A DNA stretch of 64,000 nucleotides from assembly GCA_001574975.1 (NCBI GenBank), contig KQ965741.1, positions 310,001 through 374,000 on the forward strand, read 5' to 3'. Below are positions 49,764 to 64,000 of the stretch, piece by piece. This DNA is from Gonapodya prolifera JEL478 (taxonomy: Eukaryota > Monoblepharomycota > Monoblepharidomycetes > Monoblepharidales > Gonapodyaceae). The first letter of the stretch is position 1. Every line of letters begins with the position of its first letter. The position numbers and the translations under genes were made by a program. Below the pieces are notes generated by a model, which was not told where the DNA came from, did no database searches, and worked only from the letters and a program-made list of their open reading frames with translations.

Positions 49764-52382
49764 GGAGAGGAAGGTTCGTGAGGCGGCGAGAAGGAGAAGG
49801 CACTATGGTAGACGATGAAAAGAGTGTATCGTGTTGGTGAGAGGTAGGTGGAGAGGGCGCGTTCCAGATGAATCGTTTGTGAGCAATGCGCGATGATTTC
49901 ATTCCCACCGACCGATCCCCGATTCTTCATCAACGCCAGCCATTCGATACATATTTTGAGTTTCAGCGCGGTTGCGAGGAGAAAATTGTGTTCGGACTCG
50001 CTTCTGGTCGTCCGTTGCGTCTTGCTTTCGAGTCGAAGGGGATCGTCCCCGTCGTTGACGCTCCGAATGCGTGGTAATCGTTGGGTGACAGTCCAGGCTT
50101 TGAATACTTACGGCGATCCTTCAATTGCCTGGATTTGCTGGTCAGGCGAATGAAATGTGAGTGACGGAAGTGTGAATAACGTTGTGAATAACGTTGTGAA
50201 TAACGTTGTGAATAACATGTGAATCACAGCATGCTAGAATAACATGGAGACAGCTCATTTTCGAATGTGAAAGTCGACGCTACATCAAATTAAAGCTATT
50301 ACTCCCGCTATATTGCTGCTCATTCGCATGTCACCATCTTCGCGACACCACAGAATGAATCCCTCACACTACTCCGAGTAATAAGTTAACCGCTTGAGAA
50401 TCTCGTCATTCCGTAGCCTCGACTTTTCATTGGTTTGCATTTTTGGAATAAAAGGCATCGAGCAGGGTAATCCCCACTCTGTTTAAAAATATCGCCATCG
50501 AACAGTGGAGGCAAACGCCGAAGCGTTGGGGGGAAAGCAAACGCATCAACGACGACATCCACTCCCTCTCCCGTGTTCAACCGTCCGCCCTGACTATTCC
50601 ATCCGCGAGATTCTCAACCAGAGAGTTCAATGCCCGAACTGCGCAGTGGCGTGCGAATTCCCTGCACCCGGAGACGGGCAACGCAAGGCCCTCTCGAGCC
50701 CTGCGCGGCGCGCGCCCGTTCCAGAGGACTTACACCACAAAGGAGTCACTTAGAGTTCCTCCACACTGCCGACTGTCCCCCGAATGGGAGGCAAAACATC
50801 TCACACTCACTTGGGTTCCATTCGATGATCCTGCGGGGCAGTGTGAAGAGGGATATGTTTGGATGAGAGGGCGTGTGGGGAGTGATGGTTGGAAGGTGCG
50901 TGCGGAAGGGCAGGCCTTTTAAAGCAATGGTGCACAGGCCACGTGTGCGCAGTAAATTCCTGCGCTTGGCGCGTGCATAAAAAGAATAAGAATAATGGTG
51001 CGCAGTGTTCGTTCTGCTGGTGCGAATGATTCTTTGACCGAAAAAACGATTTTCGGTTTGAGAAGATCGTTCGAGTCCACAGGAAGACAAAAAACGAAAG
51101 TATTTTGCTCATTGATGGAAATAAAATGTATCGTAGTGTCACGCGTGAGACGTGCGGATGCCATTTGTGAATGAGGTTGATCTTGTCAGAAGTGGTTTCT
51201 CGAATATTCCACGTTCGAACACCCGACGCAAATCTGTCCTCCGAATCTCAAGAATTCCATCCCAAAACACGATGCAGATCCAAAAGATGTCCCAATCCTT
51301 GCTTGATTGGCGCTTCAATGAAAAGAGAGGGACAGAAGCTCGACCTCGACAGTGAGTCAAGAAACCAACTCCATTTCCAAAGCATCGCTCCGAAAAGGCA
51401 ACGTAGCGTCTCGCCAAAGAATCGCATTTCTTACGCCTAGACAGTCCAGCCTGGAGCAGATTGCCAACAAACTCCAATTAGAAAGGGCATCGGAGGTGCA
51501 TTCTGTCGTATGGAGCTCCCTTGGAACCATCAACTCGACAAGGCAACAGAGACTGTACTGCAAGACTCCGCTTCGCTCTTCTTCGGCTGGCTCTATGCCC
51601 GTGGGTCCTAGTTCGTCGATCGGTTCGACATGTCGCCCAGCACGGCACTCGAGCGCGTATCGTCGCCATCTCGTTCCGGTTTTCCTTTGAACAATGGTAG
51701 AAACGCCGGCACGAAAGGTGTTTGTCGTGAAAACGACGCTCCTGAAAGGAAAACTGCGCCATTGGCAGTATCTTTTGTGTGGTGCATGGACCTCCAGCCA
51801 GTGAGTGTCGTGATTCTTTGGGTGACTACGGCAGCGATTCCGGGGCACTTTCATTCATTCTGGGTTAGTTCTCCAACGAGGTGTGGTGCTTGTCGTCCTG
51901 AATTCTGCATACGGGGACTCATTGATCCTCTCGCAATCAACTCGATGCAAATTACCAAGCCTCAGCGGTAAGAACTCTCTTAGTGCCCACTGAAAGTCGC
52001 GTGCAGCTGAGCCATTGGAGTTTGAGTTCATTGTGGGGCTTTACCGAGTCACTCACCAGCACCCGGGACGACGGTAATCGTGAGCCTGGTTGTCGCTCTG
52101 CATCCAAGAGTTCCGTTGTAATTCATTGATAGGGCATAGAGGCTCGTTTGTATTCGTTCACATTGGTAAAAAGCACTCGACTCCTCCTCACGTCCATTAT
52201 CGCCCCGTTTTCTCATGCCTTGGCCTTCGTCCGGTCTCCCTCTCCCTACGCTTGCGGCTGCTTTCAAACTGATGCTCGGCAGCAGAGGAAGCGAATGGGG
52301 GAGGGGGTTGACGATGGTGAAGACGGATTCACAAAACGGAACTTGTGGCCACAGCAACAAAGAGAAAGTCGTACACACGAAA
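49764..52382. other. Gene-poor stretch upstream of SGD1
   Basis: About 2.6 kb. Frames at 50505-50753, 51352-51690, 51357-51854 (minus) and 51630-51971 overlap one another and show no known motif or convincing splice signals. The part at 50160-50230 is a 12-bp tandem repeat. The last few hundred bases should hold the SGD1 promoter. Confidence 0.35.
50169..50227. repeat. 12-bp tandem repeat (GTTGTGAATAAC)
   Basis: Three exact copies at 50181-50216, with a near copy on each side (TGTGAATAAC at 50171-50180 and ATGTGAATCAC at 50217-50227). A simple minisatellite in non-coding DNA. Confidence 0.9.
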
Positions 52383-60317: not shown

Positions 60318-60675
60318 GCACTGGGCAACCCCTCCTCCCCATGTCGCGCTCATCCTTTATCGACACAGGAGTACGCTCCTCCCCTTCATTCCCTGTTGCA
60401 GCACGTATGTTTATCGGCATAGGAGCCCAGCTTCTCCCCCTTGTTCCCCTTTGCAGCACTTATCACTTATCGGCACAGGAGAATGCCCCTCCCCTCCTTC
60501 TCCTTACGCCATCGTTCTGCGACATAGAAGCTCAGCTCCTCCACCTTCGTCCCCCTTGTAGCATCGTTTTTCGGCATAGGAGCTCGTTCCTCTCCTTTCT
60601 TCCTTGTTGCAGCATGGACGTTTATCGGAACGGTAGTACGCTCCTCCCCTTTCTTCCCCCTAGCAGCATCCGATG
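60318..60675. repeat. Hairpin tandem-repeat array 1 (about 6 diverged units)
   Basis: Units begin near 60367, 60421, 60477, 60526, 60578 and 60632, with one weaker unit at about 60319. Spacing is 49-56 bp. Each has a GGAGC...GCTCC-type inverted repeat preceded by TATCGGCATA, then a C/T-rich run and TTGCAGC. It is the same family and orientation as array 2 but more diverged (hairpin arms such as AGGAGTACGCTCCT). It lies just upstream of the kinase-like gene. Confidence 0.85.
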
Positions 60676-61400
60676 GTTTACATTTGGTTTTGGTGAGTGT
60701 GAAGGCACCTTTCTGACCAGAGAAAGTGGTCTCATGGAGAGTTTGAAGCACCCGAAACAGATTCGTAGGAAATACCGGACACTTCCTTTTCAATCCTCCC
60801 GCGTTTGAGTGAGTAGTCTTGATTGACTAATAAAACGTCAGCAGCATGTTGATGATCATTTTATTTAGAGCGTTGGAATTTGTGCGGACTACATTGAGGA
60901 GCTCAGCGATTATTGTACGCCCAGCGTTTTAGATTTATTATGGTTACTAATACACGTGCATGGATATCACGTTCGTTCCATCCATAAGCTAGGTAGCAAG
61001 CAGGGAAGATCGACGTGCGGGGTCGTCGGGGTCAGCAGCTCCATTCACACGAACTGCCGAAGCAAACGACGGTGCTCGGAGACCTCCAAGACGACCTGAA
61101 GGCAGAGTTTCCGATTATCCCCAACGCATGTTTGCAGACTTTGTTTGGGCAAGCAGGGCTTAGTCAGACTTAGAGTTGCCGAGGCACTTTTCGGCGAAAC
61201 ACTTGAGGTCCACATAGCCACTCCAATTTCCACTGCTCAACCCGAATCACACACCCAGAACTCCCACTGTAAGTGCTCTTATCTTGCTGTAGCTTCTCTG
61301 TGCCGTTGGGATCTTTCTGGTGTATTCGGGATGAGCACGTTTCTTCTCCCTCCCTGTATGATATTCTCTTGCATGTCGCCTCAGTTGGACGTTGCCAAAG
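60676..61400. other. Intergenic region upstream of the secreted-protein gene
   Basis: About 720 bp between array 1 and the surface-protein start. AT-rich at 60810-60960. No conserved frame. It should hold the promoter of the plus-strand secreted gene. Confidence 0.4.
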
Positions 61401-62306
61401 ATGCTTCGAGGCAAGAACCTGCCACACGTTGGAGTGTTGACTCCAATACTCAGCCCCCTGCTCGTACTCGCGGTTTCGACGTATCTGATCGTGGCGCCGG
61501 TACTCGCAACGCACTTCGATCTGGTCTCGCGACAAAGCAACCCGTGCGCCGGTTTCAGCGCGGCTGAAGCCAAATTTTGCGGCCAAGACACTCTTGCCGG
61601 GTATCCCATCAACATTTGCGCATTCACCTCCACGGCCGATATCTGCTGTCCACCCGTCCGTAACGGCGATGGACGAACCATTCAGCTCACGTGCAGCCAA
61701 AGTGGGAACTATCCTTATTGTTGTGAAACCAACATCAGCGGCAACGATCCAGGCATTATTTGCAGCGCGGACGCATCAGTCTGGAGATTTTATAACTCTG
61801 TGTACCCATGCCTGAATGCCCCCAGATCATCCACCAAGCCCGCGAAAACGAGTACCGTGTTACTCACAGCCTCAAACGTCGCTCCACCGCCAACATTTCC
61901 TACCGGACCTTCCGTTCCCCCTCCACCGGCTCCACCCCGTCCGCCCCCTCCACCGCCTTCGCGCCCTCCCCCTACACCGCCTCCACCCTCGCCACCTTCT
62001 CCCCCACCGCCACCGCCGCCAACACCCTCGCCACCGTCGCCAACTCTTGCAACACCCCAAGTACCCGTCGCTTCTACCGCTGTTGGCGCCTCAACCACGT
62101 CATCTCCAACACCTCCAATCGACACAACTCCAACCGACTTCGGAACCAACAAAGCCACTCCAGCGCCTCCAGAGCCGTTGCCAACAACTCCTGTTCCTGC
62201 ACCAGTGAGGACTGCTGGCGCTCTTGACAGCAAGGTTCAGACTGGTTGGGCTGCGGTGGCAGGTGTTGCAGTGGTGTTGATGCTGGTTCGAGGGATGGGG
62301 TTGTGA
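61401..62306 (+). CDS. Secreted Cys-rich, Pro-rich surface protein with a C-terminal anchor
   Basis: Single exon, about 301 residues. MLRGKNLPHVG leads into a signal peptide (VLTPILSPLLVLAVSTYLIV, cleavage likely near APVLA). The mature N-terminus has about ten cysteines (NPCAGFSAAEAKFCGQ, INICAFTSTADICCPP, TCSQSGNYPYCCETN, GIICSADASV, YPCLNAP), which suggests a disulfide-tied extracellular module. A ~70-residue polyproline/Ser stretch (about 61905-62050) forms a stalk, then a Thr/Pro/Ala-rich part that could be O-glycosylated. It ends in a hydrophobic GWAAVAGVAVVLMLVRGMGL, a GPI-type signal or membrane anchor. The layout is that of a cell-wall or cell-surface protein. Ligand unknown. An ATG three codons upstream (61392) is equally possible. 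The two hairpin arrays lie on either side of it. Confidence 0.75.
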   Translation: MLRGKNLPHVGVLTPILSPLLVLAVSTYLIVAPVLATHFDLVSRQSNPCAGFSAAEAKFCGQDTLAGYPINICAFTSTADICCPPVRNGDGRTIQLTCSQSGNYPYCCETNISGNDPGIICSADASVWRFYNSVYPCLNAPRSSTKPAKTSTVLLTASNVAPPPTFPTGPSVPPPPAPPRPPPPPPSRPPPTPPPPSPPSPPPPPPPTPSPPSPTLATPQVPVASTAVGASTTSSPTPPIDTTPTDFGTNKATPAPPEPLPTTPVPAPVRTAGALDSKVQTGWAAVAGVAVVLMLVRGMGL

Positions 62307-63075
62307 ATTGGTGTGAAACTAGGGGCTTCTTTGAATGTTAGTTTTATAGGTGTCGTGCGACAAGGCGAATGTCATAAAATCGTTATCAAATTTGGAGTTT
62401 TGAATGGTTTACATCGGCATGCAACACAAAGCCGGAATCAAGCCACGCGAAGAAGCGAGTGTTCGATAATCTATCAGACTTTTTATGAGAAATGAAGGCA
62501 ACAACCCCCGCGAATCGGCATGACGCACGTGATGATCCACATCTACGGAGGGGAGAGAAATTGTAGTCGCACGGTGAAAATTTATTTGTTGTGCCAAGTT
62601 CACGCAAGGGCAGTCAAACCCTTCCCCCGCAATGTCGAAGTTTCTGTCGCCCGCGGTGAGTAATCCATTGCGCGGATTCAAATCAACGCAGAGACCGATG
62701 TTTGTGCTCAATCTCTTGAATGAAATCGATTGCTTCCTCGAGAGTTTGATCGGTTCCTCCCGCGATTGTTGGAAGATGCCAACCTGGAATTGGAAGGAAT
62801 CCTTTTCCACCAATGTGCAGTTTCTGTGCTTTTTGCTTGCTCATGATCGGTGACAGAGGATTCTGCATTTGTGGACGTCCGCTGACAATATCTTGTCCTC
62901 CCGCTCCCATCTGCCATTCGAATATCAGAGCATCGCATTACAGGAATTTCACTATCCGCCGCCAGCCAATCGCGTCACGCATGAGAACACAGGGTGAGAC
63001 GTTCCAGATTTCACCACTCCCTTTCAAGTTTGACCTGATTCCCCTATGCCGAGCTCCTCCCCATTCTGCCCGTCA
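62307..63075. other. Intergenic region with unassigned minus-strand frames
   Basis: About 770 bp. Minus-strand frames (62910-62683 and 62813-62409) contain GWHLPTIAGGTDQTLEEAID and, one frame away, LCVDLNPRNGLLTAGDRNFD. The first looks protein-like, but I recognise no family and no clear intron links them. They could be a relic. Confidence 0.3.
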
Positions 63076-63080
63076 CGTTC

Positions 63081-63885
63081 ACCGGCATAGGAGCTCGCTC
63101 CTCCCTTTGCTTCCCCTTTACAGCGCTTATCCGTCATCGGCAAAGGAGTACGCTCCTCCCCTTTCTTCCCCGTTGCAGCGACGTTTATCGGCATAGGAGC
63201 TCAGCTCCTCCCCCTTCTTCCCCCTTACAGCATTGTTCTTCGGCATAGGAGCTCGCTCCTCCCTGTTCTTTCCCCTTGCAGCACGTATCTTTTATCGGCG
63301 TAGGAGCTCGCTCCTCCCTGTTCTTCCCCGTTGCAGCGTCGTTCTTCGGAATAGGAGCTCAGCTCCTCCCCCTTCTTCCCCCTTACAGCATCGTTCTTCG
63401 GCATAGGAGCTCGCTCCTCCCCTTTTTTCCCCGTTGCAGCGACGTTTATCGGCACAGGAGCTCAGCTCCTCCCCCTTCTTCCCCCTTTCGATATCGTTCT
63501 TCGGCATTGGAGCTCAGCCCCTCTCCTTTCTTCAAGTGGGGCATCGTTCTTCGGCATAGGAGCTCGCTCCTCCCTGTTCTTCCACCTTGCAGCGACGTTT
63601 ATCGGCATAGGAGCTCAGCTCCTCCCCTGTCTTCCCGTTTCAGCACGTATCATTTATCCACATAGGAGCTTAGCTCCTCTCCATTCTCCCCCTTTCAACA
63701 CGTCTCGCTTATCGGCATAGGAGCTCGCTCCTCCCCTTTCATCCCCATTGCAGCGCTTATCCATAATGTGCACAGTAGTAAGCTTCTCCCCTTTTTCCCC
63801 ATTGCAGCATAAGTTTTCGGCATAGAAGCGCAGCTCCTCCCCTTTCTTTCTCACCGCAGCTTATCGACATGGGAGTTCAGCATGT
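63081..63885. repeat. Hairpin tandem-repeat array 2 (15-16 units of ~52 bp)
   Basis: Hairpins start at about 63089, 63144, 63195, 63247, 63302, 63353, 63405, 63456, 63508, 63558, 63609, 63664, 63719, 63775, 63824 and a partial one near 63869, spaced 45-56 bp and mostly 51-52 or 55. Unit layout: CGGCAT, then an inverted repeat of two kinds (AGGAGCTCGCTCCT or AGGAGCTCAGCTCCT), then C/T-rich CCCCTTTCTTCCCC, then GTTGCAGC or TTACAGC, then a short variable link (GACGTTTAT, ATCGTTCTT or ACGTATCATTTAT). The whole unit is conserved, so there are no unique spacers. The last units are more diverged. Confidence 0.95.
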
Positions 63886-64000
63886 GAGTCGCTGTGTTTG
63901 AAGTTCATACCCGAGTATCAACTGAAGAATTTCAAATAGCTCGACACTTTGATGCATGTATTTTTTTTCAGTACCAAATGCATTATGATGATAAATATAA

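What the first reader, a model, noticed from the sequence alone, without database searches (positions are those of the whole stretch)
63081..63885. Tandem array of a ~52-bp unit in which every copy carries a near-perfect hairpin
Fifteen to sixteen units all keep a 6-7 bp stem with a 1-2 nt loop (AGGAGCTCAGCTCCT or AGGAGCTCGCTCCT). Changes in one arm are often matched in the other (AGGAGTACGCTCCT keeps a 5-bp stem), while the linkers vary. That pattern suggests the hairpin is maintained rather than drifting. Two alternating hairpin types and two unit lengths (51-52 and 55) hint at a higher-order dimer. I know no named fungal satellite with this unit.
Basis: partly seen in the sequence, partly recalled or inferred. 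Interest (0 to 1): 0.72.

Follow-up and report, generated by a model that had tools for sequence, protein, structure and literature searches.

The report
Old hairpin-bearing tandem repeat, one contig
A short DNA repeat with a small palindrome forms four old arrays in one 200-kb stretch of a single eukaryotic contig; its core sequence is kept while its linkers drift, but the hairpin pairing itself shows no sign of being protected.

Summary
In a 47.6-Mb genome, arrays of this unit were found only on this contig (C11): four of them over about 200 kb, 50 full units. Three are the centre of one noncoding element with a shared left flank of about 440 bp and a partly shared right flank. So it is neither an assembly artefact nor a genome-wide satellite.

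The inference that compensatory changes maintain the hairpin fails. Of 50 units, 19 have arm substitutions: 14 break a pair, 4 leave G-U, 1 is compensated. Covariation does not exceed shuffles, and RNAalifold predicts no consensus structure. What is conserved is an asymmetric core of about 24 bp, CGGCAYAGGAG-(4/5 nt)-CTCCTCCC, which reaches beyond the palindrome on both sides (6.8% deviation against 22.8% in linkers). Units are no more alike within arrays than between them. The one array without flanks has a looser core but ordinary linkers.

Best reading: an old, locally duplicated minisatellite-bearing element whose core may be a clustered protein-binding site. The function is inferred, not shown.

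The parts
63076..63857 (+). array A2: 15 units stepping by 50-55 bp, C-rich on the + strand
   Evidence: TRF, profile and unit extraction
60354..60670 (+). array A1: 6 units, no shared flanks found, core more decayed
   Evidence: TRF, genome DNA search, units, flank comparison, core decay
62604..63045 (+). left flank of the element, shared with the arrays at C11:256994 and C11:454659; three copies found in the genome, apparently noncoding
63898..64000 (+). last part of the right flank of the element (homology ends at C11:374002, 2 bp beyond the window), 75% identical to C11:258113-258212
63189..63212 (+). example of the conserved core of about 24 bp within one unit (CGGCATAGGAGCTCAGCTCCTCCC)
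   Evidence: read; column statistics over 50 units

Best explanation
Shown: the array is the centre of an old noncoding element (left flank about 440 bp, 13-16 units of about 52 bp, right flank up to about 290 bp) present within about 200 kb of one contig as three flanked copies, one of them inverted, plus one array for which no flanks were found. Each unit keeps an asymmetric core of about 24 bp (CGGCAYAGGAG, 4 or 5 nt, CTCCTCCC) that contains the palindrome, while loops and linkers have drifted. Inferred: the core is kept because a DNA-binding factor reads it in double-stranded form, so that each flanked array is a cluster of 13-16 binding sites acting on its neighbourhood (silencing, insulation or enhancement). 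The palindrome would then mark two half-sites rather than a working hairpin.
For: Arrays found only on C11: 28 of 30 pattern hits genome-wide lie in the four arrays (reversed control 1), 21 of 21 hits of a core pattern (control 0; none of the 21 is in A1), and 5 of 5 DNA matches. Shared flanks found only there: left 3 of 3 matches, right 3 of 3. Core columns 8-18 and 24-32 deviate from the majority in 6.8% of cells against 22.8% for linker columns 1-7 and 33-43 (Mann-Whitney over columns, p 7e-6). Array A4 has the most diverged linkers (28.5%) but a core as intact as the others (4.9%). Sameness is not explained by within-array homogenisation: identity 0.712 within against 0.708 between arrays, p 0.25. 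The bare array A1 has a looser core (9.6% against 4.6, 5.9 and 4.9%; p 0.022) but ordinary linkers (p 0.57), as expected if constraint was lost with the flanks.
Against: The gap between half-sites is 4 nt in 21, 5 nt in 28 and 6 nt in 1 of 50 units, unlike a rigid dimer site. Paired columns are not kept significantly better than their neighbours (p 0.21), and rare variants alone do not separate core from linker (4.3% against 5.0%, p 0.24), so part of the linker variation may be old subfamilies; some column pairs are linked (71 of 406 at p<0.05). Linkers of A2 are somewhat more alike within than to other arrays (0.707 against 0.650; the reverse in A3 and A4). Almost no solo cores elsewhere (2 hits outside C11, 0), so no general factor is indicated. 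The A1 test rests on 6 units and was chosen after looking. No expression or binding data.
Confidence: 0.4

Rival explanations
1. A functionless old minisatellite. A palindrome-bearing seed expanded by slippage, the surrounding block was copied locally, and the arrays now decay. The core looks conserved because short-tract conversion, possibly started at the palindrome, keeps refreshing it, or because linker columns inherit old subfamilies and indel misalignment.
For: All arrays and flanks found lie within 200 kb. Unit order between arrays is largely lost: order-shuffle p from 0.011 to 0.77 over six array pairs. Rare variants are as frequent in core as in linkers. Degenerate end units exist in A2 and A3.
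Against: Conversion within arrays should leave units more alike within arrays, which is not seen overall (core within-array 0.887-0.911 against 0.897-0.904 to other arrays). The conserved block extends outside the palindrome on both sides. Edge units are not significantly more decayed (p 0.30 core, 0.15 linker).
Confidence: 0.4
2. A transcribed array whose RNA hairpins are the working part (hairpin small RNAs or a structured noncoding RNA).
For: Whole arrays fold better than dinucleotide shuffles (z -3.4, -3.5, -5.2 for A2 on both strands and A3 on one; A1 and A4 not folded). 31 of 50 units have perfect 5-bp arms.
Against: No covariation beyond shuffles, no consensus structure, 14 of 19 arm-substituted units break pairing, six single units fold no better than shuffles, no Rfam match in the window at gathering scores.
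Confidence: 0.08
3. A non-autonomous mobile element with a central tandem array, like the Helentron-derived HINE elements, that hopped locally.
For: Same anatomy: left flank, central array, right flank, in three copies at separate places, one inverted. The right end carries a short AT-rich palindrome in A3, imperfect in A2 (seen by eye).
Against: No inverted repeat found between the ends of A2 or of A3. Only three copies found, all within 200 kb. No Helitron_like_N match, though that search rang in no control either. Gene X was also duplicated beside A2 and A4, which fits ordinary local duplication.
Confidence: 0.1

Closest known systems
Minisatellites / short satellite-like arrays of eukaryotic genomes
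   Same: head-to-tail units of about 52 bp, diverged, unit order between copies largely lost
   Different: no overall within-array homogenisation; uneven conservation along the unit; found in one 200-kb region only; three of four arrays sit between conserved noncoding flanks
HINE elements (non-autonomous Helentrons with central satellite-like repeats, e.g. Cg_HINE in oyster, PMC7492417; listing, abstract and passages seen)
   Same: left module, central tandem array, right module
   Different: no subterminal inverted repeats found, no genome-wide spread, no Rep protein detected (that search had no working control)
Arrays of palindromic protein-binding sites such as F-plasmid sopC or the EBV oriP family of repeats (recalled; the paper search gave listings only, none read)
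   Same: tandem units of tens of bp, each with one imperfect palindrome
   Different: half-site spacing varies by 1 nt between units; no cognate protein known; on a chromosomal contig
Double-hairpin elements of fungal mitochondria (recalled; search listing only)
   Same: short hairpin-bearing repeats
   Different: one hairpin per unit, tandem, on a 621-kb contig whose neighbouring genes, judged by eye, carry introns

Membership tests
Minisatellite | head-to-tail units of roughly 10-100 bp | tested here: met
   50 full units in four arrays
Minisatellite | concerted evolution: units more alike within than between arrays | tested here: not met
   0.712 against 0.708, permutation p 0.25; linkers of A2 alone lean that way (0.707 against 0.650)
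HINE (Helentron non-autonomous element) | central tandem array between left and right modules | tested here: met
   definition from passages of PMC7492417
HINE (Helentron non-autonomous element) | subterminal inverted repeats of 11-12 bp | tested here: not met
   no 12-mer pair with at most 1 mismatch between terminal windows of 150-160 bp in A2 or in A3; A4 not tested; more decayed repeats would be missed
[quoted passage not shown]
   short AT-rich palindrome at the right end of A3, imperfect in A2, judged by eye, no statistics
HINE (Helentron non-autonomous element) | autonomous Rep/helicase partner in the genome | tested here: inconclusive
   no PF14214 match, but no control genome rang either
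Structured RNA / maintained hairpin | compensatory substitutions above chance | tested here: not met
Palindromic protein-binding array (sopC / oriP-like; features recalled) | each unit holds an inverted repeat within a conserved core | tested here: met
   31 of 50 units with perfect 5-bp arms
Palindromic protein-binding array (sopC / oriP-like; features recalled) | fixed spacing of half-sites | tested here: not met
   gaps of 4 nt (21), 5 nt (28), 6 nt (1) among 50 units
Palindromic protein-binding array (sopC / oriP-like; features recalled) | a cognate binding protein | not testable with these tools
   needs binding or ChIP data

The most novel reading that the evidence does not exclude
A chromosome-specific cis element: three flanked arrays of 13-16 near-palindromic binding sites each, confined to one contig, that a dedicated factor reads to mark or regulate that chromosome or its local gene block, with the bare fourth array a relic that lost function along with its flanks.
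Probability: 0.1. Interest if true: 0.7.

Novelty: new member of a known kind. Interest (0 to 1): 0.33.

Why it matters
If the core is selected, this is an unusual tandem array kept site by site rather than by homogenisation, and restricted to one region; comparing the bare and flanked arrays gives a natural test of what keeps a repeat array intact. If it is not selected, it is a useful warning that a hairpin seen in most units of an array need not be maintained as a hairpin.

Tried and rejected
Hairpin maintained by compensation: rejected. Assembly artefact: rejected, since the arrays and flanks are about 70-79% identical at separate places. Genome-wide satellite, or a centromeric or telomeric repeat shared by other contigs: rejected, arrays found on one contig only, with the tool's warning that repeat counts are lower bounds. 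C11 is not among the contigs listed with TTAGGG arrays, but only about 100 of 133 hits were listed. Coding repeat: rejected, because units of 52 and 55 bp shift the frame and the gaps in the left-flank alignment are mostly not multiples of three. An ORF at 60341-60808 crosses A1 but nothing supports it as a gene. Tandem splice acceptors (pyrimidine tract plus CAG in many units): considered and dropped, because the CAG columns are the least conserved of those measured (identity about 0.51). Known RNA family: none in the window at gathering scores. Viral relative: 13 IMG/VR stretches with one match each of the core pattern, taken as chance and not read. Named fungal precedent: not found in the listings; these are listings of an open-access library, not proof of absence from print.

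Rows dropped before counting: 4 of 54 profile hits (one at each end of A2, one at the start and one inside A3) were left out as partial or degenerate. One row of the 50 (A3_266) is misaligned by one base in the hairpin of the alignment, which counts slightly against pairing but not.

Full report
What is there. Window 63076-63857 holds 15 head-to-tail units stepping by 50-55 bp, with one degenerate profile hit at each end. A second array of 6 units lies at 60354-60670.

Genome distribution. A DNA search with the array gave 5 matches, all on C11, in four arrays: A3 at 256994-257926 (+), A1 at 370356-370661 (+), A2 at 373075-373848 (+), A4 at 454659-455320 (-). The pattern AGGAGN{3,4}GCTCCTCCC hit 30 places, 28 of them in these arrays (8 in A3, 1 in A1, 11 in A2, 8 in A4) and 2 elsewhere, against 1 for the reversed control. 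The pattern TCGGCAYAGGAGN{3,6}CTCC hit 21 places, 7 each in A2, A3 and A4, none in A1 or elsewhere, control 0. The search tool warns that repeat counts are lower bounds.

The element. The left flank (window 62604 to about 63045) was found again only beside A3 and A4 (3 of 3 matches on C11 including itself; 79% over 298 bp and 76% over 432 bp for the other two). The three copies align over 470 columns, 274 of them identical in all three, with gap lengths mostly not multiples of three. The longest fully identical run is 14 bp, not beyond chance for that identity (p 0.086). A 19-bp block next to the array has exact matches in just these three places, plus one 2-mismatch hit elsewhere, against 3 control hits. 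The right flank of A3 (C11:257933-258218) is shared in its first part by A4 and in its last part by A2. A1 showed neither flank in the 840-950 bp compared on each side. Nearby, a 1482-bp block at 86% identity is shared between 374207-375681 (+) and 457483-456024 (-). It contains gene X, an open frame of about 200 codons (199 and 207), with no Pfam match for the 164 residues scanned and found only at these two places. X lies downstream of A2 but upstream of A4 (in the orientation of each array), so the region has been duplicated and rearranged.

Is the hairpin maintained? Over 50 full units (4 of 54 hits dropped as partial), 31 have perfect 5-bp arms. Of the 19 with arm substitutions, 14 break at least one pair, 4 leave only G-U, and 1 (A3, AGGAT...ATCCT) is compensated. 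On the alignment, 90.9% of cells pair against 90.1 +/- 0.5 in shuffles (55 of 500 at least as high), covariation is 0.092 against 0.084 +/- 0.008 (69 of 500), and pairs changed on both sides are 2 against 1.1 (150 of 500). Sliding the partners by 1-3 columns drops pairing to 38-58%, as expected when the structure is read from the consensus. RNAalifold predicts no pairs. Whole arrays fold better than shuffles as RNA (A2 on both strands, A3 on one; 20 shuffles each), by eye mostly through pairing between units; six single units do not. The high percentage of pairing comes from conserved letters, not from linked changes.

What is conserved. Columns 8-18 and 24-32 of the unit, CGGCAYAGGAG and GCTCCTCCC, deviate from the majority in 6.8% of cells, linker columns 1-7 and 33-43 in 22.8% (p 7e-6 over columns). 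Paired columns are not significantly better kept than their immediate neighbours (5.6% against 9.0%, p 0.21). Counting only rare variants, core and linker do not differ (4.3% against 5.0%, p 0.24), so subfamily history may contribute; linkage between polymorphic columns is present, much of it among neighbouring columns (71 of 406 pairs at p<0.05). Mean identity is 0.712 within arrays and 0.708 between, p 0.25; taken apart, linkers of A2 are more alike within (0.707 against 0.650), those of A3 and A4 less. Core deviation is 9.6% in A1 against 4.6, 5.9 and 4.9% in A2-A4 (p 0.022), while A1 linkers are ordinary (p 0.57), and arm substitutions occur in 5 of 6 units of A1 against 14 of 44 elsewhere (Fisher p 0.024). 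That comparison was made after the flank result was known and rests on 6 units.

Higher-order structure. Hairpin types alternate significantly in A3 only. In A2 the first six steps read 55, 51, 52, 55, 51, 52, a trimer that TRF scores above the dimer. Unit order between arrays is mostly lost (p 0.011 to 0.77 over six pairs, two of them below 0.05).

Mechanism. The anatomy is shown; the function is inferred. A cluster of double-stranded binding sites explains the asymmetric core, its survival where linkers are most diverged (A4), and its loosening in the bare array. A functionless, locally copied minisatellite is as likely. RNA hairpins are unlikely on present evidence.

Novelty. I found no named repeat with this unit in the listings, and no Rfam family in the window. 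As a kind it is a minisatellite-bearing local element, hence a new member of a known kind with two unusual traits: no overall concerted evolution and an uneven, core-centred conservation.

Noticed in passing
C11:374207-375681 (+) and C11:457483-456024 (-): A two-copy block, 86% identical, carrying gene X (about 200 codons, no Pfam family, two copies found in the genome), next to arrays A2 and A4 but on opposite sides of them.
   Followed up: partly
L002:1-1220 and L003 about 1-390: Leucine-rich-repeat genes lie beside arrays A4 (Pfam hits on its first 108 residues in the locus) and, judged by eye only, A3.
   Followed up: partly
window 61392-62306 (+): Open frame for a likely secreted protein: cysteine-rich first part, long proline-rich middle, hydrophobic C-terminus (by eye); no Pfam match, and no second copy of its first 154 residues found in the genome.
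   Followed up: partly
right flank of A3 and A4 (within C11:257933-258218 and 454522-454647): Both copies keep an intron-like stretch from GTGAGTA to CTTACAG of about 55-60 bp; a GTGAGTAATC is also kept near the start of the left flank in all three elements (by eye). The element may be, or may once have been, transcribed and spliced.
   Followed up: no
window 50171-50224: A short array of 4.6 copies of TGTGAATAACGT, unrelated to the finding.
   Followed up: no
units with loop TAC in A1, A2, A3: Five units carry the loop TAC (two in A1, one in A2, two in A3, none in A4), four of them with C before the left arm; one stands first or second in A1, A2 and A3, suggesting that array starts keep their register while interiors do not.
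   Followed up: partly
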